A stretch of DNA of 64,000 bases from Haliclystus octoradiatus (Eukaryota; Cnidaria; Staurozoa; Stauromedusae; Haliclystidae): assembly GCA_916610825.1 (NCBI GenBank), contig OU744447.1, positions 5,525,402-5,589,401 of the forward strand, read 5' to 3'. The translations under genes were made by a program, and so were the position numbers. Below are positions 23,601-63,790 of the stretch, one piece after another. Numbering within the stretch: the stretch's first letter is position 1; each line of letters starts with the position of its first letter. Under the pieces are notes generated by a model that worked only from the letters and a program-made list of their open reading frames with translations, ran no database searches and had not been told where the DNA came from.

Positions 23601-24161
23601 CAGCAATAGTCAGAAGAGACTACCAAAATACTGATATGGGAAAAAACTATTAGTACGGGATTCTCCGCTCTAATGCACAGATGGACTATAAAAGTCTGTT
23701 TGAGTCGCTGACTTAACATAAACATACATGCTTGATATTATAATCCCTTCATTCTATTTTCAGATCAATTAGTGGGATTACATCCGATATGTTTCGATGG
23801 TAACAATGATGGTTTTGGCTCATTTGTTTTCAATGGGAGAAATGATGAATACTATATTCGTCTTATTCATACATCTGGTTCCATTGCATGTGATATTTTT
23901 AGTGGGATTAAGCATCCATTAACCTGTTTTGATTTGACAATATTTCCTGTCTTGACCGATTTCAATAATAAAGTTTTGATTAAATCGTTCCTTCCAACTG
24001 ACGGCCTCACAGTAAAGACAATCAATGTCATTTCAAAAAAGACAACAAGGCTGAATACAGGAGAAGTTTATCGCTTATGGATGATAGAAGACCTGCAAGA
24101 TCTCGATGATATGGATAATTCTGGAACGACATGCGTCTATGTTTTTGTTACTCCAAAGTAA
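20626..24161 (+). CDS. Gene A: predicted secreted PAN-like protein with an unnamed C-terminal domain
   Basis: Three exons are proposed: 20626-20958, 22846-22861 and 23764-24161, giving about 248 residues. Donors are TCG|GTAAGC and AAA|GTAAGT; acceptors are TATTTCTAG and TATTTTCAG. The phases fit: exon 1 ends on a whole codon, the 16-bp micro-exon leaves one base, and exon 3 starts with two. The N-terminus is hydrophobic (LLTMWLLISSTYFAASG), so a signal peptide or anchor is likely; a start at the ATG at 20695 would give a more typical signal peptide. Exon 1 has the PAN/Apple-like pattern RCGILCSVETLCQAFDYI with a further Cys. Exon 3 encodes a domain of about 130 residues: YYIRLIHTSGSIACD, a second Cys, a VLTDFNN stretch, GEVYRLWMIEDL and NSGTTCVYVFV. 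This matches the last exons of gene B and 60554-60954. Similar C-terminal regions occur, as I recall, in uncharacterised invertebrate PAN proteins. The function is unknown. Confidence 0.7.
21883..22327. mobile_element. Foldback element in intron 1 of gene A
   Basis: TAGACCGAGCGCCACAGAAC at 21883 pairs with GTTCTGTGGCGCTCGGTCTA ending at 22327. Arms of about 190 bp continue through CAACTTGAAAATCACAT, the complement of AGGAATAGGTAATTG-like sequence, and CACGGTCAGAGCC. A loop of about 80 bp separates them. Non-coding. Only GTG could be read as a shared flank, so the target-duplication type is undecided. Confidence 0.7.
22515..22620. repeat. 41-bp tandem repeat, about 2.6 copies
   Basis: The unit AACCAATAGGATATAAGATC, followed by CGTTTAATCTAAATATATTTT, starts at 22515, 22556 and 22597. 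The copies are almost identical, so the array is young. It sits in intron 1 of gene A. Confidence 0.85.
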
Positions 24162-26010: not shown

Positions 26011-30278
<4,268 letters not shown>

Positions 30279-30479: not shown

Positions 30480-31400
30480 CTGTATAGGTTATAGGTGAGA
30501 GAGTAATTGAGGTGGCATCGCCCTATCGAAATGCTCCCATACCACTCGTCTGTATCAATATGAGTGGCTCTTCTCTCTAAGAGCAATGATTGTAAATGCT
30601 CTTTGGTGATCTCATACATGACACTGCAGCTCAATTTCTTCAGATTTCATTGGCAGATAGGACTTGATTGTTAATCCTCAACGATGTACCGCAGCTCCTC
30701 GTGATGCAATACCCTCTGGACCATTCCATCTGCTAATGTTGTACTCTCATTTGACGTTTTAGACGAAGTTAAGGCTGAAGTTGACCTTATATATAGGGTT
30801 ATGAAATTATCGAATGTGATACTGGTCACTGATTGGTTGTTATTGATGATTGTGTCAGGCAGGCTTCGTGAAACCGTAAAATTACGGCTTTTGGCTTGAA
30901 ACTCTAAAACGCAACAAAATGGCAACACAATAAAATGGCGTTAATAAGAAGCAAGGGCTTTGTTTGATAGAGCAAATAAAAATACCCTTCACATTCAAAT
31001 TAGCAACAAGAAAACATAATTACTTTTAAATCAAATTATAAATTAAAAAAAGTATATAAAACCCCCTTGTTTCTGCCCATGGTTCTACAGCATTTTTGTT
31101 TTGTTGATAAACGCCAAAGCCAAGCGGCACGATACATTTCAGACAGTATCGCACTGCTTTAAAAGTATAAACGCATAGGATCCTGTATTTGAATAGCTGA
31201 ATAATACTTTAAATCTTCTTTATAAATAATATATGCATTCAGATTTAACCAATGCTTTTTGGGTTTATTTTAATCTGTTTTATAACTTGTTGTAGCTTTC
31301 CTCAAAAAGCGCATCATGTTTTATTGAAAGTCCGCGCGCGTTCTAGTCTCTACGATGACAACATTTAAGGATAATTTAGATATGATCATTATTTTGAGCT
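30480..31400. repeat. Dispersed repeat, most complete copy
   Basis: The left part (CCATACCACTCGTCTG ... GAGCAATGATTGTAAA ... CTCAATTTC) recurs at 37365-37500, and the right part (GGTTCTACAGCATTT, TTTTGTTGATAAACGCCAA, CTGCTTTAAAAGTATAAAC, TTCTAGTCTCTACGATGAC) recurs at 40735-41240 and resumes at 45294. Because this copy reads through GATGACAACATTTAAGGATAATTT, it serves as the empty site for the foldback element at 41243-45284. No protein is evident. Confidence 0.75.
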
Positions 31401-39843: not shown

Positions 39844-42800
39844 ATGGCTGATAATTATCAACTGCGTTTATTTTCTATTCTCTCATTGTGTTCCTTCACT
39901 TTATCAATATTATTAACAAATCCTTCATGTAATGCTCCTGGGATATTTGAATTGTACATGAACTCTACTGCAAATACAAGTAGTTTGATTATTGGCATTT
40001 CAACGATGAGCTCTTTCACACAGTGTATATTCAATTGTAATAGAAATTTAGAATGTGATGGTCTTGATTACATAGATGGTATGAAAGAGAAGAATTGCAT
40101 CTTATTTTCCTATTTCCATCTCAAACTTTTCGTCTTGGATGGAGTCACTCATGCTGAAGTAAGTTGTATCATATTACTATTTTTTTTTTTTTGTTATGAA
40201 TTCGTAGTGTCTGGAAATGGAAGTGAGGTCTGAGCTCTCATTTATACGTTGAGCCATTTACGATGTTTATTTGTATTTTTATGCATGTCCGATTGTATGA
40301 GAATTGTCTACAAAGCGGTAGTAGAAGATGGTTAAAAACCTAACTATGAAGGCGACTTCTGAAAGAAGACCTACTCGCTGATGTCGCAGTGACATAAAGA
40401 TGATAATGTAGATGATAAAGTGTTCCACCAGTAGTCACCTGGATTTAACACAATCAGAAAATTGTTTTTTTACTGAAAGTATTTTGAAATTTGATTTACA
40501 TTTGAGATTTGATTCTCATATTGATAAATGTAATGTTTCCTGAGAATATAAAATCATTTCCAATTCACAGTTGATTTCATATAAATTATTTTACTTGTGA
40601 TTTATTTGTTTCAGAAACAAAATCAATCATGGCCAGGTATGAATGTCCACAATATGTCCGGCAATATGTGTGTTAGTACAATTTCATTAGTATTGAAAAA
40701 AATAGTTACTGTAGTGTCATATTAAGACATTGTAAAATCATCGAACGCGATGCTGATCGCTGATTTTGTTGTTGTTGATGTTTGTGTCAGGCTACATAAA
40801 ATCGTAAAATTACGGCCTTTGACTTGAATCCCCATAATGCAAACACTTTTAAATCAAATCATAAATTAAAAATAGTCTATAAAACCCCCTTGCTCAATTT
40901 TTCTGTCCATAGTTCTACAGCATTTCTGTTTTGTTGATAAACGCCAACGCCAAGCTGCAGTTGGCGTTACCTTTACGATAAACTTTAGTATTTCACTGCT
41001 TTAAAAGTATAAACTGACTCTATATGCGTATAGCGGAATAATACTCTAAATATATAATGTTAAAAAATTATGTATCCTCTTCTATATAAATAATGCATTT
41101 AGAATTAGCCATTGCTCATTGCGTTTATTTTTAATCTGTTTTAATTCCATTTTTAAGACTTTTCGTAGCTTTCGTCGAAAAGCGCAACATGTTTCTATTA
41201 AAAATCTGCCCTCGTTCTAGTCTCTACGATGACGCTATTTTAATGTCTGTGAAGTTAGACTCATATTCGTCTGGACGAATATTCAAATAGACCTATATTG
41301 GAGTGCGTTAAATAACGCTTCGCACAAATGCTGTGAGCATAACAGACATACTAATGGAAGATTTACGAAGTGAAGAAACCATATAAACTACAAAAAATAT
41401 ATAACAAAGTCGATAAATGCAATATGAATTATCGTAAAGAAAATAAATTATCAAAACATATAAAATCGCACCAAAAAATTGAATTATTCATTTGACCGCA
41501 GATAAACGCATGACTGATCAAATTAATCACGGGTGTTTAGACAAGAACATGGATTAACAGTGTTTGCGTAACAGTATGGAATATAAAAACAGACGAATAT
41601 TCAAATTAACAGTGTTGTATGGAATAAAAAACAGACGCATATTCAAATTATCACGGGTTTTGATTTAAAACTTTGGACGAATATTCAAATTATCACGGGT
41701 GTAATCTAAACTTTGGACGAATATTCAAATTAACAGTGTTTCGTATGGAATATAAAAACAGTCGCATATTCAAATTATCATGGGTTTGATCTAAAACTTT
41801 GGACAAATATTCAAATTAACAGTGTTGATCGTATGGAATATAAAAACAGTCGCATATTCAAATTATCATGGGTTTGATCTAAAACTTTGGACAAATATTC
41901 AAATTAACAGTGTTGATCGTATGGAATAAAAAACAGACGCATATTCAAATTATCACGGGTTTTGATTTAAAACTTTGGACGAATATTCAAATTATCACGG
42001 GTGTGATCTAAACTTTGGACGAATATTCAAATTAACTGTGTTTCGTATGGAATATAAAAACAGTCGCATATTCAAATTATCATGGGTTTGATCTAAAACT
42101 TTGGACAAATATTCAAATTAACAGTGTTGATCGTATGGAATATAAAAACAGTCGCATATTCAAATTATCATGGGTTTGATCTAAAACTTTGGACAAATAT
42201 TCAAATTAACAGTGTTGATCGTATGGAATAGAAAAACAGACGCATATTCAAATTATCGGCTTCCCCTCTCCTCTGTATGTAATCCCTGTAATTTATATTA
42301 TAACATCCCGATTTTACGAAATTATATACAATATTTAAAGACGAAGCAGGGAAGCAAAAGTGATCCAGGGAGATAGAGTCCCGTGCTGAAATAGAGCGAT
42401 TATGGAGGAATTTCCAGTCACTAAACAGAGATTTCTTGTCTGTTTACTATTTCCTAACGAAGCTCTAGCACGTAATTGGCAAGCGAATATAATTGCAAAT
42501 ACAAATTCACCTGGAACGAAATATCAGGAGGTTACGCATGGCAGCACAAAGTTAAAGAAACATCCGTTGATTGTGTAACACATCCTCTAGCATGCAGTGA
42601 TTTACTGCTCAATAATACGAATGATGCTTACAATGTCATCACAACTGTCCCTGCATCATCTATTTCTAATCCTATTGAAATTCTAAAATAAAATATGAAC
42701 GAAACTCTTATTTCTGAAAAAACGGTAGGTTTTGGAAAAATTTATCAAAGAATATTGCTCAACAATATCACTGTTATTATTCTACAACCGACGTCACAAC

Positions 42801-45800
42801 AACCACGTAATGTCAAAGGCAAAGTTGTATAACTATAAAAAGGTCAAATAGAAATGGACACTCAAATTATTTGTTTTTCCAATGTCCTCCTATTGATGAA
42901 TCAGCTCAAACACAACCAGCATCAAAACCAGTAAAAATCCAAATCAAAATGTACAACAGAACAATAGTGTCCAAAGTTTTAGATCCAACCCGTGATAATT
43001 TAAATATACGTCTGTTTTTTATATTCCATACGAAACCCTATTAATTTGAATATTCGTCCAGAGTTTAGATCAAACCCATGATAATTTGATTACTAGCGTC
43101 TGTTTTTATATTCCATACGAAACACTGTTAATTTGAGTATTCGTCCAAAGTTTAGATACAACCCATAATAATTTGAATAAGGGTCTGTTTTAATATTCCA
43201 TACGAAACCCTATTAATTTGAATATTCGTCCAGAGTTTAGATCAAACCCATGATAATTTGAAAACTAGCGTCTGTTTTTATATTCCATACGAAACACTGT
43301 TAATTTGAGTATTCGTCCAAAGTTTAGATACAACCCATAATAATTTGAATAAGGGTATGTTTTAATATTCCATACGAAACCCTATTAATTTGAATATTCG
43401 TCCAGAGTTTAGATCAAACCCATGATAATTTGAAAACTAGCGTCTGTTTTTATATTCCATACGAAACCCTATTAATTTGAATATTCGTCCAGAGTTTAGA
43501 TTAAACCCATGATAATTTGAATACTAGCGTCTGTTTTTATATTCCATACGAAACACTGTTAATTTGAGTATTCGTCCAAAGTTTAGATACAACCCATAAT
43601 AATTTGAATAAGGGTCTGTTTTAATATTCCATACGAAACCCTATTAATTTGAATATTCGTCCAGAGCTTAGATTAAACCCATGATAATTTGAATACTAGC
43701 GTCTGTTTTTATATTCCATACGAAACACTGTTAATTTGAGTATTCGTCCAAAGTTTAGATACAACCCATAATAATTTGAATGAGCGTCTGTTTTAATATT
43801 CCATACGAAACACTGTTAATTTGAATATTCGTCCAAAGTTTTAGATCAAACCCTTGATCATTTGAATGAGCGTCTGTTTTTATATTCCATATACGAAACA
43901 CTGTTAATTTGAATATTCGTCTAGAGTTTAGATACAACCCATAATAATTTGAATAAGGGTCTGTTTTAATATTCCATACGAAACCCTATTAATTTGAATA
44001 TTCGTCCAGAGTTTAGATTAAACCCATGATAATTTGAATACTATCGTCTGTTTTTATATTCCATACGAAACACTGTTAATTTGAGTATTCGTCCAAAGTT
44101 TAGATACAACCCATAATAATTTGAATAAGGGTCTGTTTTAATATTCCATACGAAACCCTATTAATTTGAATATTCGTCCAGAGTTTAGATTAAACCCATG
44201 ATAATTTGAATACTAGCGTCTGTTTTTATATTCCATACGAAACACTGTTAATTTGAGTATTCGTCCAAAGTTTAGATACAACCCATAATAATTTGAATAA
44301 GGGTCTGTTTTAATATTCCATACGAAACCCTATTAATTTGAATATTCGTCCAGAGTTTAGATTAAACCCATGATAATTTGAATACTAGCGTCTGTTTTTA
44401 TATTCCATACGAAACACTGTTAATTTGAGTATTCGTCCAAAGTTTAGATACAACCCATAATAATTTGAATGAGCGTCTATTTTAATATTCCATACGAAAC
44501 ACTGTTAATTTGAATATTCGTCCAAAGTTTTAGATCAAACCCTTGATCATTTGAATGAGCGTCTGTTTTTATATTCCATATACGAAACACTGTTAATTTG
44601 AATATTCGTCCAAAGTTTTAGATCAAACCCGTGATAATTTGAATATGCGTCTGTTTTTTATTCCATACGAAACCTATTAATTTAAATATTCGTCTAAAGT
44701 TTAGATCAAACCCGTGATCATATTTGAGTAAGCATCTGTTTTTATATTCTATACGAAACACTGTTAATTTAAATATTCGTCTAAAGTTTAGATCAAACCC
44801 GTGATCATATTTGAATAATGGTCTGTTTTTATATTCCATATACGAAACACTGTTAATTTGAATATTCGTCCAAAGTTTTAGATCAAACCCGTGATAATTT
44901 GAATACGCGTCTGTTTTTTATTCCATACGAAACCTATTAATTTAAATATTCGTCTAAAGTTTAGATCAAACCCGTGATCATATTTGAGTAAGCATCTGTT
45001 TTTATATTCTATACGAAACACTGTTAATTTAAATATTCGTCTAAAGTTTAGATCAAACCCGTGATCATATTTGAATAATGGTCTGTTTTTATATTCCATA
45101 CGAAACATTGGTAATTTGAATATTCGTCCAAAGTTTTAGATCAAACCCGTGATCATTTGAATATGCGTCTGTTATTTTGACATCTGTTTTTATATTCCAT
45201 ACGAAAAACAATTAATTGAATATTCGTCCAAAGTTTTAGATCAAACCCATGATAATTTGAATATGAGTCTAACTTCACAGACATGCTATTTTAAGAGAAT
45301 TTACATATAATCGTTATTTTGAGGGTATATATTGCCATTTCAAAAACAATGGATTTGGACAGAACTTTTTTCAGAAAGCTGTTGGAAGCCGAAGGTTTTA
45401 CGTCTCAAAATTCATCTCAAGTCTAATTCTGTCATTTTTAACCCGGGTACCAGTATCGTTGCGTAGCAATAAGATAACCCTGATGATGTGATAAGTATGT
45501 GCTATAAAATGTTGAAACAAAAAGCTACAACTTTGAAGGTGTATATCTCTTTTTGGAATATGTTATATTTTATGAAAAGTAGAACATCACGATCGTGATG
45601 AACAGCTTTTTTTATTTTTAATAAAAAAAAATAAAATACATCTTTTCAGCCTGTAACAATTAAAACGTAGAATCATGGTCAAAAATCGCGGTAAAACTCT
45701 CTTGTGGAAAATAACATCGTCCATTTTATATTTCCAAAAGGTGGGACACGAGAATCTCCAAATTCCATGTTCAAAATCAATTTTGAGGGGGAAATAATCG

Positions 45801-46813
45801 CACAATACAAACACGCAAAAGGGTCATATCTGGATAGAAAAAAGGTTCTATCCAAATCCGTGGTGTAAAAAAAGGCGATATAAACTTTTTAATATTCTGC
45901 ATTTAGATGACATATAATTGTTTAGCTGTTCACTTCTTGATAAAGAATAGCTAAAAATAGAAAAGTTTCAGAACGTTAGAATTACGAGAATATATATTAA
46001 TTTTGAAGTTTTACCTACTTATTCATATCCATACTTTTGAATTCGTTACTCTCCAGAATTCGGAACTTCCACCTATGTATACTGTAGAGAATTTACATTT
46101 GAAACTCTAAGCATTGATGACTTTACCAGTCTTCAATATGTATCAATGTATCGACAAGTTCCTAGCCTAGTTTGGGTTATGCTTTTATGATCAAAGTATG
46201 CCTTTGCATATATATGGGGAGTCGAAATTATATGCATAAAAGAAAAATTCCAAACCTCATACCTGCATCTGCCTGATAGTCAATCTCATTCAATTACTAA
46301 ATAGTCCACAACTGCCGCATGTATTATTTCCATCAAAAACTTATTTGTGTCTATATATTTAGGTTTGATAATTTTTACATTTCAGACTATATTTCGATTG
46401 GATCAGAATTCTTCATCAAAGGAAAAGCAGACGATTATTCTGCATTCAACCATGGTTGTGCTACTGGTTACTATTGGATTAAACTGATTTGGCAACACGG
46501 TGGGGTAACATGTTCTCGAAATCACTCTTCTGTACCATTCTCTTGTCATCATCCTTCTCAACAGAGAATCCAGATATTGTTAACTGATGACCACAACAAG
46601 AATGGTATTGTTAGCAGATTTATGAGCACATCTGGTGATATTGTCACTTCTAAGATAATTGTGTCTGAAAACTATGTCAATTTGGTCCAAGGCAAAGAAT
46701 ATCGGTTTTGGTATAAAGAAGGTATTACTGGTTTTAGTGCTAATAATGATGGCACAACATATTTCTCTGTTTCTCTGAAACATGTCGTTGCTGATTCTTC
46801 CACTTGCAATTGA
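39844..46813 (+). CDS. Gene B: predicted secreted PAN-like protein with an unnamed C-terminal domain
   Basis: Three exons are proposed: 39844-40158, 40616-40637 and 46386-46813, giving 254 residues. Exon 1 ends at the strong donor GAA|GTAAGT in phase 0. The 22-bp micro-exon (acceptor TTGTTTCAG, donor CAG|GTATGA) leaves one base, and exon 3 (acceptor TTACATTTCAG) begins with two, so the frame closes exactly. The start gives a good signal peptide (LFSILSLCSFTLSILL). Exon 1 has the PAN/Apple-like pattern QCIFNCNRNLECDGLDYI with a later Cys. Exon 3 carries the shared domain: GYYWIKLIWQHGGVTC, VPFSC, LTDDHNKNGIVSRF, GKEYRFWY and DGTTYFSVSLK. The paired Cys residues suggest an extracellular fold. 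The 5.7-kb second intron contains the foldback element at 41243-45284. The function is unknown; a secreted adhesion or ligand-binding role is a guess. Confidence 0.75.
40735..41242. repeat. Dispersed repeat, copy split by the foldback element
   Basis: Blocks shared with 30807-31370: TTCTACAGCATTTCTGTTTT, GTTGATAAACGCCAACGCCA, CTGCTTTAAAAGTATAAAC, CTAGTCTCTACGATGAC. The repeat resumes after 45293 with GAATTTACATATAATCGTTA, matching AATTTAGATATGATCATTA of the intact copy. Confidence 0.8.
41565..42255 (+). repeat. Left satellite arm, about 8 units of 85-88 bp
   Basis: Units read ATTCAAATTAACAGTGTT-GATCGTATGGAATATAAAA-ACAGACGCATATTCAAATT-ATCACGGGTTTGATC-AAACTTTGGACGAAT. Some units are nearly identical (for example those starting near 41815 and 42115), which points to recent duplication inside the arm. 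Confidence 0.9.
42256..42959. other. Central segment of the foldback element
   Basis: About 700 bp of non-repetitive DNA between the arms. The plus strand has a 71-codon frame at 42476-42691 (starting at a non-ATG codon) and, in another frame, FPNEALARNWQANI near 42450, which faintly recalls THAP-type sequences. Neither is convincing, so I call it non-coding cargo or a decayed gene. Confidence 0.35.
42960..45270 (-). repeat. Right satellite arm, about 27 units of 85 bp with a 170-bp higher-order pattern
   Basis: Same unit as the left arm, in reverse orientation: GTCTGTTTTTATATTCCATA-CGAAACACTGTTAATTTGA-GTATTCGTCCAAAGTTTAGA-TACAACCCATAATAATTTGAA. From about 43000 to 44450, two unit types alternate (ends ACACTGTTAATTTGAGTATT and ACCCTATTAATTTGAATATT), giving a dimer of about 170 bp repeated seven or so times. 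From 44600 to 45100 another block of about 260 bp is duplicated almost exactly (starting 44618 and 44878). Confidence 0.9.
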
Positions 46814-51282: not shown

Positions 51283-54200
51283 GGCTACGGTTATATGGAC
51301 GCGCCGAACTCAATTCGCATTTGGGGTTATACAGACGAACCAAATGTCAACGATCTTTAAAAACTGGCCAAAATGACACGTGATAGGAAGTAGTTTTCTT
51401 GGAATTATACCGCATGGTTTGAAACCAGAGTGTTTTGTTTGCATTATATTTCATTTTCAGTGATTCTTTCGTTCTATCTTGCCTATCAATAGTTTGAAAC
51501 TTGTATAAGGTAGTAATTTAAAAGGTTTGCAAGCATTTTTATGGGAGGAAGTTTTTGTTCTAACAAGGCATAGTTCTCAGAGCAAATTAAATGCGAATTT
51601 CCATTAAAATGACATGTTATGATAAAAGCGACCCCAATTCTAGTGCTGATGCATTGTGATTGACTCATGATTTTAAGCTTTAATTCATGATTTTGGAAAA
51701 CATCAGCTTCCCTGTCAGCCATCTTTCAATCATATAAACAAGTCACCATAACAACTTCCCAAAAGCGATGTTCTTTCTATCGCATTGCCATGGAAACATT
51801 CTTTAAAATAATTTATGATTTGCACATCCCCCGGTTAATTCCGGCTTATTGCCATATAAGGTAGATATAGGAGCTCAGTCACGGCACCGTGAGTCGAATG
51901 TATTTAGTTCGGTGCGATGATAGCTCGCTCGTATAACGCGGAGATGAATTTAATTCATGGAGAAGAGCTCCGCACGTCAAGGCTTGATAGTCCAGTCAAT
52001 CTAAAATTTGACCAAGGACAAATTGCAACACAAGCTTTTTTTATGGAATATAGGGTAGAATTTTATGCTGAACAACATATCAAAAATCGAGAAAAATCGA
52101 AGTGGCGGAAGGTGCTCAATTTTATAGAAATTAGTTACGGTCGGCATGAAAGCGAGGCTGTTTCATTTAGGGCTAAAAACTGAGCGATATTTCAAAAAAT
52201 AAGAGAATGTACGCAATCAAGAAGAACACACTCAGTGACAAAATATAATTGCAGAAAAAAAATCATAAGTTGATCAGTATAACAGAAAAAACCATAACGA
52301 GGCTAAAAAATTATATTAGGGAATTTACTGAACTTTTACTGTACTATCACCAATAACAAATGCGCATTAAAAGAGGCTTGGCATAAGAACACGCATTAGC
52401 TCCTTGCAGATAGAGGCAAATCGATGTACCTAACGATTATATTAATTAACTACCAGGCAAATATTAAAATATTAAATTCTATTCAAATCGGCAAAATCAA
52501 AATAAATCTTATATAAATCAAGTAGACCATCCCGTACAAAGTAAGGATGCGTCTAATCACCCTCAGTAGTGAAATGGGTATGGTCCAAGAGTCCAATACC
52601 AATAATAGGAACATTCCTGACATCATAAAATCATATCTAGGTTAGATAGAATGTATATATAAATCCATCCCATAGGCATCACAGATACATCTAACCCCCT
52701 CAGTAGTAATAGGTGTGGTCCAAGAGTCCAATATCAAGAACAGGAACATTTCTGACATCATAAAATCATATCTAGGTTGCATAGAATATATATATAAATC
52801 AAGTAGACCATTCCATATGGATATTAGATACATCTTATCACCCTGAGTAGTATAATATGTGTGGTCCAAGAGTCCAATACCAATAACAAGAACATTCCTG
52901 ACATCATAAAATCGTATTTAGGTTAGATAGAACGTATATATAAATTAAGTAGACCATCCCATAGGCATCACAGATACATCTAACCACCTCAATAGTATAA
53001 TAGGTGTGGTCCAAGAGTCCAATATCAAGAACAGGAACCTTTCTGACATCATAAAATCCTATCTAGGTTGTATAGAATATAAATATAAATCGAGTAGACT
53101 ATCCCATATGCATATTAGATACATCTTATCACCCTCAATGGAATAATAGGTGTGGTCAAAGAGTCCAATACCAAGAACAGGAACATTTCGGACATCATAA
53201 AATCATATCTAGGTTGTATAGAATATAAATATAAATCGAGTAGACCATCCCATATGCATTATAGATACATCTAATCACCCTCAGTAGTATAATAGGTGAG
53301 GTCCAAGAGTCCAGTACCAATAACAGGGACATTTCTGACATCATAAAATCATATCTAGGTTGCATAGAATATATATATAAATCGAGTAGACCATCCCATA
53401 TGCATTATAGATACATCTAATCACCCTCAGTAGTATAATAGGTGTGGTCCAAGAGTCCAATATTAAGAACAGGAACATTTCTGACATCATAAAATCCTAT
53501 CTAGGTTGTATAGAATATAAATATAAATCGAGTAGACAATCCCATATGCATATTAGATACATCTTATCACCCTCAGTAGTATAATAGGTGTGGTCCAAGA
53601 ATCCAATATCAAGAACAAGAACATTTCTGACATCATAAAATGATATCTACGTTACATAGAATGTATATATAATTCAAGTAAACCATCCCATAGGCATTAC
53701 AGGTACATCTTATACATATATATATAAATCAAGTAGACCCTCTCATAGACATTATAGTTACATCTCATCATCCTCAGTAGTATAATAGGTGTGGTCCAAG
53801 AGTCCATAACTTTCACCATCATAAACTTTATCTATGATTATAAAATAATGTAGATGTTGAATACAATGGATGTATATTTCTAATAAAACCATTCAAAATA
53901 GATTGAAGAGACATTCAACCATTGTTGCAATAATTAACATGTGTGGTCTAGGGGTCCACAGAAGATAACAAGAACATCCTCAATTGCTCAAAAGATATCT
54001 AGGTTGCACGATACCAGACAGGCAATGTTTGTAAATTAGGGGTTGAGCAACAGTTGGGGCCTTTTACGGCTCATCAGGACGTGTTATTGCCCTAAATTTT
54101 GTCTGTGAAATCGTGAATAGGCATTCTTATCTACGTTATTGCGTTATCGATGATTTTTGCGTTATAAAAAAACAAAAACATGAAGTTTTACAGAATATTT

Positions 54201-60553: not shown

Positions 60554-60954
60554 TTATTGTTCATGATGAGCAGCTTTAAAAAGAACAGTAAATATGCTCG
60601 TGCCACTGTTATCCTTAAACCAATTGTCTGAATACCAGAATCTGTATTCTTTCCCTTGCTCTAAACGAATAAATGTTTTTGAAACAACAACTTTTGAGTT
60701 TGAATCATTACCGTCTGCACTTTCAAATTTCGAAATTATTCCATTGAGATCGCGGCTGTCAGTTAACGAGACAAGAATAGTTCCCTTAGCATTTCCACAC
60801 GCGAATGGCGTTTCAACAGCAGTCCCAACACATTTGACATAACCACTTTCCCATACTAGTTTAATCCAATATAAACCAGTACTGCGAGCATGATAAAAAT
60901 TTGAATACGATTTTTTTCCAGTGAGATAAAATTGTGTTCCAAATCGGATATAAT
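60554..60954 (-). CDS. Gene C: last exon of a third member of the gene A/B family
   Basis: The exon follows the acceptor TCAATTTTATAG and begins with two bases before the first full codon, the same phase as exon 3 of genes A and B. It encodes about 133 residues: YIRFGTQFYLTGKK, GLYWIKLVWESGYVKCVG, TPFACG, LTDSRDLNGIISKF, FIRLEQGKEYRFWYSDNW and NSGTSIFTVLFK. It is closer to gene B than to gene A. No micro-exon or PAN exon could be found on the minus strand from 60955 to the right edge of the window. The gene may have a long intron running out of the window, or this may be an orphan exon. The orientation is opposite to genes A and B. Confidence 0.65.
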
Positions 60955-63790
60955 CTATAAAATTGAATAGCACAAAAGAATATTTTCAGAGCAATATACA
61001 TTGTATAAAGAAAATAATCACATCTATTGATTTACCATTAAAATTATCTTTGAAAACAATTGATAAGGAGAGATAGCAAAGGGAAATCACTCATGGAGCC
61101 TGAATTCAACGCTTTAAAATCGTTTCCTTCAACTGACCATCCCTAACTTTCAAAAGAAAGGGAATTTGCAGAATCAATTAATTATTTTACTTAAACTGTC
61201 GATGATGTTTTTGTACTACATGATCCAGAATTGCACATATTTATTACTTACAAAAAATCAACACTTATGATTTCAAACTGTCGATAATCGATTTGGTAAA
61301 CACGGTTTCAACAAACAAACTTTCTGATGGTAAATGCTTATTTATTTTCTCTGACTTGATAACTTTCTTCTAAATTCTGTCACAATCTTCTTAAGATATA
61401 ACTCAGTCGCGGAATTAGAACGCACCGTTCTGTTTTCGAACATCCGTCGTTTGCTGATCTACCTTTCCTTCACCTTGATATTCTCCACTCAAGAATCTTT
61501 GGTACAAATAATGCTTATGAAAGATGTCAGAAGCTCTAAGCTCAACATCATCGAAGTTTTATTTCATAAAATTATTGAAATTTGAGCCTTTAGAAAAATT
61601 TTCCAAAAAAAAGAGCTTTCATACTATTAATAATGTCTTCAATAAATTACATTTGCATACCATTTGTTGAGAATGTATTTAAACATGGGAGATAGCTGTT
61701 CTAACTTGCAGTCGGACTGTTTCTTTATGGAGAAATGTTGTGAGGAATTAATAATAATAACTATTAGATAAGTATCAGAAATACAGCAAATACACCTAAC
61801 CACGCGTAATAATCAGTAAAATATGTAATTATTTATTTCACGATGTTTCATGACATATAGCATGTCTTTATTAGTATAGATAAGCTCTTTTTATATACTT
61901 AATTAAGGGAACAATACAATATATAATGAGTTGTTCCTGTGTTAATTTCAATTCCCCGAGGAAGTCCTATTCCAACAAGAATAATAATTCCTTAAAGAAT
62001 ATTTTGTTAAACATGATACAAGCGATTTTGATAATAACAATAATAATATCTGTCAGGAAAATGTTCAACTGTAACAAAATTGCAATGGATTTATTTAGTA
62101 TTTGTTTGTTTGATTATGTGTTAGTTGCCTTCAATCAATAAAATACGGATAGATGACATCTTTATTGTCATACATTGTGCTTTAAAATATTAACAATATA
62201 AATGATAATGAGAAATGATTGTTTTAAAGTTCATTGTCTTCATTGGTTTATCAACATCTTTTGATTCCATAAATTGAAGGGTTTCTGCTATGTCTTATTG
62301 TTGATTAATGGACTATTCTGGGTCTCATTAATCAAACTGGAGAATTCCCTCAGGCACTTCTATGACATCCCTTGACAATAGCCTTGCAGCCATCATTTGA
62401 AGTTTTGACATAGTATAGCTATTGAAGTCCATTTCTTGATGATGTGGAAGCTCAAAATAACCAGCGAAAAGATATAATCTGAATGTTTGATGATATTGTA
62501 GCTATTACATAAGTATGGAGAGATGAATATCAGCATGATATAAAAAAAATCCAAATACCGTGTGGCTTCATTATGAAAGACGCTGATGCCATGGCTGAAG
62601 GAGTAACCAAAGCGATTGCTGACAATGAGGACGATAGTCGTTGCCATTGTAAAGATAGCCGTTGCAAATCCTGGTGAATACTGTTTAGACAACTGTTTTT
62701 GCGGAGAGACTCCGATAAAGTTGGCACGAAACCATGTAATAATAATATTACATAATAATATAAACTGCAAAATGTAGTATTATTATATATATAATAGTAA
62801 TATTTCTGATCATAATTTTTATTCAGGCATTTCTCTTTACTAAAATCAACAATAATACAAAACATTTATAAATCAGCAAGCCTTCGGCTTACGGCTTGGG
62901 CCTGGGCCTTGCCGCTTCGCTCTGATAAGATTTATCGCCGGATTGCTTCGCAATCGGTCAACGCAATCGGTTGATGGGTTCACAGTAAATTATTGCAAAT
63001 GCTACAAAATGCCTGAGAATTACGTAATCGGAAGCATTAAAATTGTAATAAAACTTTGAAACTTTAAAATTGAAAAAGTATCAAAGCAGTTCTACCAGAT
63101 TAAAGATATAAAAATGAAAAGGAATGTCTACAACATTTAAACTATTGAACCCTCACGCAGCTCCAACAGATGAAAGCATTGTAATTTCAAAGGACCCAAA
63201 TGCTATTCTTATTTGTTAACTCTTACATGCTCATATGTCCTAATGGTGTTATTTTAAAATGGTCCATCTCGACGATAATATTAGAATTTAAATAAAGTAA
63301 AAAGCATAAGAATTGGATTATTGGATAAAGAATTCCATCTTACTGGATATAGTTTATTTAATCAAATTCCAACGGGAAAATAAGAGAATTGAATTTTGAT
63401 AAGATAAACATCGGCAAATTTAGATATTTTCAAACATTTTTTGCTGTCCCTTGAATCCACTTACCACGAATATCGTTAATGTCCAGGTATTTCACGGTGC
63501 CAAGGGCAGGTCTTTTGTTGTTTAAAATATTCCAGCTGACTGATTTCGAGAGCTGCCTCAGAAAAAGCAGTGAACTATTTCCAGATGTTGTCGTTTTAAA
63601 ATCGTTTTTTTTCGATGATAATATAAAGATTTAAATATAATAAAAGGCCAAACAATAAATATAGATTTCAATCTTACTGGTATGTGGTGTCACATTGAAT
63701 TCTAACAGAATTATAATTAAGAGGATTGAGAAATTAAAGTTCGTCGACTTCGGACTTTTTTCGTAATTTTCTTAATTTTTCGTAAGGTAA
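60955..63790. other. Stretch without a recognised gene
   Basis: Would be the intron and 5' region of gene C if that gene is complete. 62400-62640 is a diverged copy of 38140-38420. 62880-62960 is a short GC-rich island with GCAAGCCTTCGGCTTACGGC and GGATTGCTTCGCAATC, small hairpins of unknown role. Minus-strand frames at 62393-62865 have hydrophobic runs but no known domain. Confidence 0.4.

What the first reader, a model, noticed from the sequence alone, without database searches (positions are those of the whole stretch)
41234..45293. Foldback transposon whose arms are opposed satellite arrays
Seen: 26-bp exact inverted ends, 9-bp duplication GCTATTTTA, and arms made of the same 85-bp satellite in opposite orientation (about 8 units left, 27 right). 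The repeat at 30800-31400 reads through the insertion point (CTCTACGATGAC then ATTTAAGGATAATTT), so insertion into an existing repeat is supported independently of the duplication. Known: foldback elements such as Drosophila FB and sea urchin TU have this design. Inference: the array was spread or seeded by transposition and then grew unequally in the two arms.
Basis: partly seen in the sequence, partly recalled or inferred. Interest (0 to 1): 0.85.

Follow-up and report, generated by a model that had tools for sequence, protein, structure and literature searches.

The report
Foldback transposon family with satellite arms
This is one copy of a jumping-gene family in an animal-like genome whose two ends are mirror-image arrays of a short satellite repeat; it is a clear new example of a design already known from a few other animals.

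Summary
In detail: 26-bp exact inverted ends (41243-41268 / 45259-45284), 9-bp duplication GCTATTTTA, and opposed arrays of an 85-bp satellite covering about 8.2 and 27.2 units. The joined flanks align at 75% through the junction with 31022-31398. Of 20 other stretches fetched, 13 hold complete elements; 12 have exact 9-bp duplications and one has a single mismatch. Arms run from 1.8 to 77 units, uncorrelated between sides. The 2707 satellite cores counted in the genome are close to the ~2812 that the elements predict, so no large free satellite is apparent. A few copies carry decayed transposase-like exons, tentatively of Mutator (MULE) type; profile tests are weak. It is a foldback family like Tetris, Rehavkus or Tm1: a new member of a known kind. 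The window copy is atypical, having lost the right subterminal domain.

The parts
41234..41242 (.). left target-site duplication GCTATTTTA
41243..41268 (+). left 26-bp exact terminal inverted repeat; in other copies the terminus of about 46 bp contains the satellite motifs AGACGCATATTC and TGGACGAATATTCAAAT
41269..41573 (+). left subterminal domain, mostly not satellite, shared with other copies (window left end 94.5% to the consensus end)
41574..42257 (+). left array, about 8 unit lengths of the 85-bp satellite (40 + 45 bp half-units)
42258..42962 (+). centre, 705 bp, a module also found in other fetched copies (L009 twice, L016, L023, L024, L027); no Pfam match in the two peptides tried
42963..45270 (-). 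right array, about 27 unit lengths in opposite orientation; overlaps the right TIR through shared sequence
45259..45284 (-). right 26-bp terminal inverted repeat; runs straight into satellite, the 264-bp subterminal domain of other copies being absent
45285..45293 (.). right target-site duplication GCTATTTTA
40845..41242 (+). left part of the older repeat into which the element inserted (continues at 45294-45323)
31022..31398 (+). uninterrupted copy of that older repeat (further match 30804-30900)

Best explanation
The feature is one non-autonomous copy of a multicopy DNA transposon family of foldback architecture; the confidence given is for this. Shown: shared ends, 9-bp target duplications, and inverted arms that are arrays of one 85-bp satellite which appears largely confined to the elements. 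Tentative: the family was mobilised by a Mutator-superfamily (MULE-like) transposase, remnants of whose exons lie in a few copies. Inferred: the satellite arose by duplication of the terminal motifs GACGMATATTC / TGGACGAATATTCAAAT, was carried to new sites by transposition, and then expanded and contracted mostly within each arm by local duplication (unequal exchange or slippage), with some arm-to-arm copying. The window copy lost its right subterminal domain, most simply by recombination between the CATATTC motif of the TIR and the same motif in a satellite unit (inference).
For: 139 TIR ends, reversed control 0. 9-bp duplications in 14 of 14 complete elements examined, window included (13 exact, 1 with one mismatch), all of different sequence. 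Opposed arrays in all 14. A 46-bp centre at 13 places genome-wide with 0-1 mismatch, in 7 of the 14 elements, with arms of 4-48 units. Satellite cores 1322 forward / 1385 reverse, control 0; none in the window outside the element; 708 cores on 35 ends x 139 ends predicts ~2812 against 2707 observed. TIR-to-unit alignment score 34, maximum 25 in 2000 letter shuffles. Nearest-neighbour units: same arm 45% (shuffled 7%), opposite arm 7.4% (3.0%). Arm-to-arm copying: L and R ends 100% identical over 311 bp in L009 and L010 though 2-3% from consensus. Transposase-like exons: one piece matches at 3 places; another at 5 places with 95-100% identity, 4 of them inside or beside elements, the fifth not examined. 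The exon with a DATG...D pattern aligns with an uninterrupted stretch elsewhere in the genome at score 89, maximum 55 in 2000 shuffles.
Against: No intact transposase inside an element was found. The exons scanned and the relative have no Pfam match of note. hhalign against MULE domains of the same genome gives E 0.35 (probability 0.2%), and E 0.015 (probability 3%) with the relative added: not significant. Of 85 MULE matches, the 20 loci held show none of these ends in their 3.3 kb. 7 of 20 fetched stretches have only one end, so broken copies are common. L055 is a cluster without an end in 2.8 kb. Mean unit identity is slightly higher between opposite arms (91.0%) than within arms (90.2%) when pooled, though within-arm is higher in 10 of 14 elements, lower in 3 and equal in 1.
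Confidence: 0.9

Rival explanations
1. A free satellite existed first and was captured between transposon ends; the elements are secondary carriers.
For: One satellite cluster without ends was found (L055). Free arrays on contigs other than C1 cannot be excluded, because the listing shows only the first 100 places.
Against: The satellite total is near what the elements predict; 13 of 14 clusters listed on C1 lie near an exact end; the terminus itself contains the unit's motifs in the same orientation.
Confidence: 0.07
2. The inverted arrays are not a mobile element but an inverted duplication made by recombination at this locus, with the short direct repeat by chance.
For: Inverted arrays can arise by such rearrangements in general (knowledge).
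Against: The same bounded structure with a different 9-bp duplication occurs at 13 other fetched places; the older repeat reads through the insertion point.
Confidence: 0.01
3. The family belongs to another superfamily (for example P-like, as Galileo does), the transposase-like exons being of another type, captured or unrelated. Its confidence was raised from 0.2 to 0.3 on re-reading the hhalign probabilities.
For: No Pfam MULE match; hhalign probabilities 0.2% and 3%. Galileo shows that foldback architecture arose in the P superfamily (PMC3573991, passages).
Against: 9-bp duplications, within the 8-11 bp of MULEs (PMC6446971); the exons sit inside or beside elements at 4 of 5 near-identical places; the D motifs align in register with MULE domains.
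Confidence: 0.3

Closest known systems
Tetris, Drosophila virilis (PMC4079207; abstract, outline and passages seen)
   Same: Apparently non-autonomous foldback; TIR = outer flanking domain + tandem repeats (~220 bp) + inner domain; 8-10 bp duplications; repeats share a 37-bp stretch with the flanking domain; arms vary in repeat number.
   Different: Unit 85 bp; here 14 complete elements examined and 139 ends counted, against 3 structurally complete copies there; no large free array seen here, whereas TIR-220 also forms long arrays; transposase-like exons in some copies here, none found there. Sequences were not compared.
Rehavkus, incl. Rehavkus-1_TC of Tribolium (PMC6446971 and PMC10218199; passages seen)
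   Same: 9-bp duplications; satellite in the inverted termini (TCsat23, 164 bp, mostly five and eight monomers); MULE-related transposase.
Tm1, Meloidogyne (PMC3169594; abstract and two sections read)
   Same: Mutator/foldback family, composite TIRs of variable repeat number that differ between the two ends, 9-bp duplications, multi-exon transposase.
   Different: Repeat motif most often 14 bp, 1-9 units; its transposase matches Pfam MULE and FLYWCH, ours does not.
Galileo, Drosophila (PMC3573991; passages seen)
   Same: Long internally repetitive TIRs with independent tandem-repeat changes in the two TIRs; repeats proposed as secondary transposase-binding sites.
   Different: P superfamily; about 210-bp repeats, two or three copies in the passages seen.
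Drosophila FB and sea urchin TU
   Same: Inverted arms built of tandem repeats.
   Different: Not compared by sequence here.

Membership tests
Foldback (FB-like) elements, by architecture | long inverted arms made largely of tandem repeats, variable in length | tested here: met
   14 of 14 complete elements
Foldback (FB-like) elements, by architecture | multicopy, flanked by target-site duplications of about 9 bp | tested here: met
Foldback (FB-like) elements, by architecture | sequence homology to Drosophila FB | not tested
   no FB sequence was compared
Mutator (MULE) superfamily | 8-11 bp target-site duplication and long TIRs | tested here: met
   9 bp; 311-bp non-array ends plus arrays; range from PMC6446971
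Mutator (MULE) superfamily | MULE-type DDE transposase encoded by family members | tested here: inconclusive
   decayed exons with a DATG...D pattern; no Pfam match; hhalign E 0.35 and 0.015, probability 0.2% and 3%
Rehavkus | PHD finger in the transposase | tested here: inconclusive
   no Pfam PHD match in the three exon pieces scanned, but the coding region is incomplete
Rehavkus | 9-bp duplication and satellite next to the TIR | tested here: met
   definition from PMC6446971
Tetris | sequence identity of termini with Tetris/DAIBAM | not tested
   no Tetris sequence was compared

The most novel reading that the evidence does not exclude
The 85-bp satellite is a transposase-binding-site array that evolved out of the transposon's own terminus and exists only as mobile inverted arms. 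Arm length is then a selfish trait (more binding sites, better mobilisation) that changes at or between transpositions by local duplication and arm-to-arm copying, giving a natural series of 4 to 48 units per arm around near-identical 46-bp centres in which to test how a satellite is born.
Probability: 0.25. Interest if true: 0.6.

Novelty: new member of a known kind. Interest (0 to 1): 0.42.

Why it matters
It shows a satellite that appears still largely confined to its transposon of origin, with a series of elements that share a near-identical centre but differ widely in arm length. That makes the proposed route from foldback transposon to satellite DNA (suggested for Tetris) directly testable, and adds a further family to the few described.

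Tried and rejected
Autonomous partner among Pfam MULEs: 85 matches, of which the 20 loci held were checked and none has these ends in its 3.3 kb; the other 65 were not checked. Pfam, NCBIfam and PDB matches for the exon pieces: none meaningful. Viral contigs: 12 pattern matches, none a relative. The window centre as a gene: two peptides, no Pfam match. The mitochondrial COX1 contig was located but not read. Passages of PMC8277862 and PMC13359780 were seen and not used.

Chance and local inverted duplication were rejected.
Full report
Setting. The window is G000:C2:5525402-5589401 of an unnamed 262-Mb, 33-contig genome. One contig carries a COX1 with in-frame TGA, as in animal mitochondria; I take the host to be an animal (inference).

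Observation. The element spans 41243-45284 (4042 bp). Its ends are exact inverted repeats of 26 bp and it is flanked by GCTATTTTA twice. TRF and a unit map give a + strand array at 41574-42257 (8.2 unit lengths) and a - strand array at 42963-45270 (27.2) around a 705-bp centre. The 85-bp unit is two half-units of 40 and 45 bp that begin alike. Joining the flanks without the element and one duplication copy gives a sequence that aligns at 75% over 431 columns, through the junction, with 31022-31398 of the same window: an independent sign of insertion.

Family. Searching the genome with 41100-41500 gave 317 candidates, 40 scored, and 41 matches including the window itself; in 39 of the other 40 the similarity starts at query position 134-145, the element's first base being 144, and in one at 173. 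The 26-bp end occurs 78 + 61 times at <=2 mismatches, reversed control 0. I fetched 20 stretches covering 26 of those 40 matches: 5 chosen because a facing partner was visible in the list and 15 from the rest of it. All 5 and 8 of the 15 hold complete elements. 12 of these 13 have exact 9-bp duplications and L024 has one mismatch; the duplications all differ in sequence. The other 7 (L014, L016, L020, L021, L022, L026, L028) show one end only. Complete elements are 1717-8030 bp long.

Plan. The 13 other complete elements begin and end with a terminus of about 46 bp and a subterminal domain of about 264 bp, followed inward by opposed arrays. Departures: arrays interrupted by other sequence in L009, L012, L019 and L023; a duplicated left end in L027; arrays meeting almost directly in L012, L013 and L019; a right end read slightly differently in L019. 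The window copy departs more: its right TIR passes directly into satellite. In 7 of 14 elements the arrays meet at one 46-bp centre, found at 13 places genome-wide with at most one mismatch. Other inner sequences are a 2.1-kb segment with transposase-like frames (L010, 98.7% identical in L028) and the window's module, also in L009 (twice, inverted), L016, L023, L024 and L027 and elsewhere (50 matches including itself, 40 of 89 candidates scored).

Arms. Which arm is left is arbitrary. Unit lengths range from 1.8 to 38 on the left and 5.3 to 77 on the right, uncorrelated (Spearman -0.02, n=14). Elements with the same 46-bp centre have arms of 4.4 to 48. Over 422 full units from 14 elements, the nearest neighbour lies in the same arm for 45% (7% with shuffled labels), in the opposite arm of the same element for 7.4% (3.0%), and in another element for 47% (90%). 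This points to mainly local duplication with some exchange between arms. Pooled mean identities are less clear: same arm 90.2%, opposite arm 91.0%, other elements 88.9%; within-arm exceeds opposite-arm in 10 of 14 elements, falls below it in 3 and equals it in 1. In the window copy the arms are less alike (83%) than either is within itself (87-90%), fitting separate growth. Arm-to-arm copying is suggested by L009 and L010, whose two ends are identical over 311 bp though 2-3% from consensus, while the other 11 elements have 91-98%; the mean within an element is 96.3% against 94.7% between elements. The window's T at TIR position 19 is in both of its ends and in no other of the 100 exact ends listed, but the end in L014, which has one further change, also has it, so it may simply mark a subfamily.

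Is the satellite ever free? A 30-base core occurs 1322 + 1385 times at <=3 mismatches, control 0. In 21 loci (14 elements, 7 one-ended places) I counted 708 such cores on 35 ends; scaled to 139 ends this predicts about 2812, against 2707 found. The loci were not a random sample and ends with more than two mismatches are not in the 139, so this is approximate. Of 14 clusters in the listing, all on contig C1, 13 have a listed exact end within about 1.6 kb (by eye); the 14th (L055, 2.8 kb fetched) has none. The listing is capped at 100 places, so other contigs were not surveyed this way.

Origin of the unit. The terminus contains AGACGCATATTC and TGGACGAATATTCAAAT, both found in the unit in the same orientation; alignment score 34 against a maximum of 25 in 2000 letter shuffles, and 22 on the other strand. 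The satellite therefore plausibly arose from the element's own end, as proposed for Tetris (37-bp shared stretch, PMC4079207). That such repeats are extra transposase-binding sites is proposed in print for Galileo (PMC3573991); here it is inference.

Transposase. L010, L028 and L053 carry a 154-residue frame, a second frame of 147, 95 and 80 residues respectively, and in L028 only a 172-residue frame. The 147-residue piece matches at three places (four matches, two adjacent). The 154-residue piece matches at five places with 95-100% identity, two of them over 82 residues only: C6 (a complete element, L010), C8 (between listed facing ends 18 kb apart, flanked by opposed arrays), C10 (beside a one-ended array; no left array or end in the 15.3 kb examined), C1:721932 (between opposed satellite runs near an end) and C11 (not examined); two more matches are 38-40% identical. 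The 172-residue piece has a DATG...D pattern. It has no Pfam match of note but eight weak genome relatives at E 0.003-0.04, besides a 65% match over 55 residues at C4:23264269 whose surroundings I did not read. One weak relative, read as an uninterrupted 133-residue stretch, aligns at score 89 against a maximum of 55 over 2000 shuffles. Comparison with MULE domains of the same genome (10 stop-free of the 20 loci) puts the D motifs in register but is not significant: E 0.35, probability 0.2%; E 0.015, probability 3% with the relative added. That the pattern is typical of animal MULEs is recalled, not tested.

Comparison. Tetris, Rehavkus, Tm1 and Galileo share the design. Text searches for foldback with satellite DNA, FB-NOF/Phantom, foldback with bryozoa, and Rehavkus turned up these; I noticed no paper on this exact family in those listings, but without a sequence search that is weak. 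I file it as foldback by architecture, MULE type tentative, Rehavkus or Tetris membership untested by sequence.

Noticed in passing
28567-28657: A 73-bp near-perfect hairpin (28576-28648) flanked by a second 9-bp duplication, GCATGTATG, between two LINE-like frames (by eye). Some 40 places in the genome match mainly its core (82 matches counting both strands, 40 of 86 candidates scored); folding z-score -11.3, flanks included. Looks like a tiny MITE family; duplications at the other places were not checked.
   Followed up: partly
29254-30278: About 342 copies of ATA, 99% matches, a 1-kb nearly pure triplet array just after a LINE-like frame.
   Followed up: no
52510-53713: Tandem array of a 146-bp unit, 8.3 copies.
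   Followed up: no
46301-46813, 60554-60985, 23736-24161: Three open frames that look alike by eye, the first two sharing YWIKL.W..G, without a Pfam match: perhaps a local gene family.
   Followed up: no
G000:C7:23971035, 23994364, 24017314: Three ends of the family about 23 kb apart, each followed by the window's centre module at 676, 676 and 1031 bp (the third has a 355-bp duplicated end): looks like a tandem segmental duplication that carries the element.
   Followed up: no
G000:C2:4349239-4349521: Two facing exact ends only 283 bp apart, too short for two subterminal domains: apparently a minimal, array-less derivative.
   Followed up: no
L041 (G000:C11:15726236): A 465-residue frame with a MULE match and a cysteine-rich start that looks PHD-like by eye, of interest for the Rehavkus question; none of these ends in its 3.3-kb locus.
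   Followed up: no
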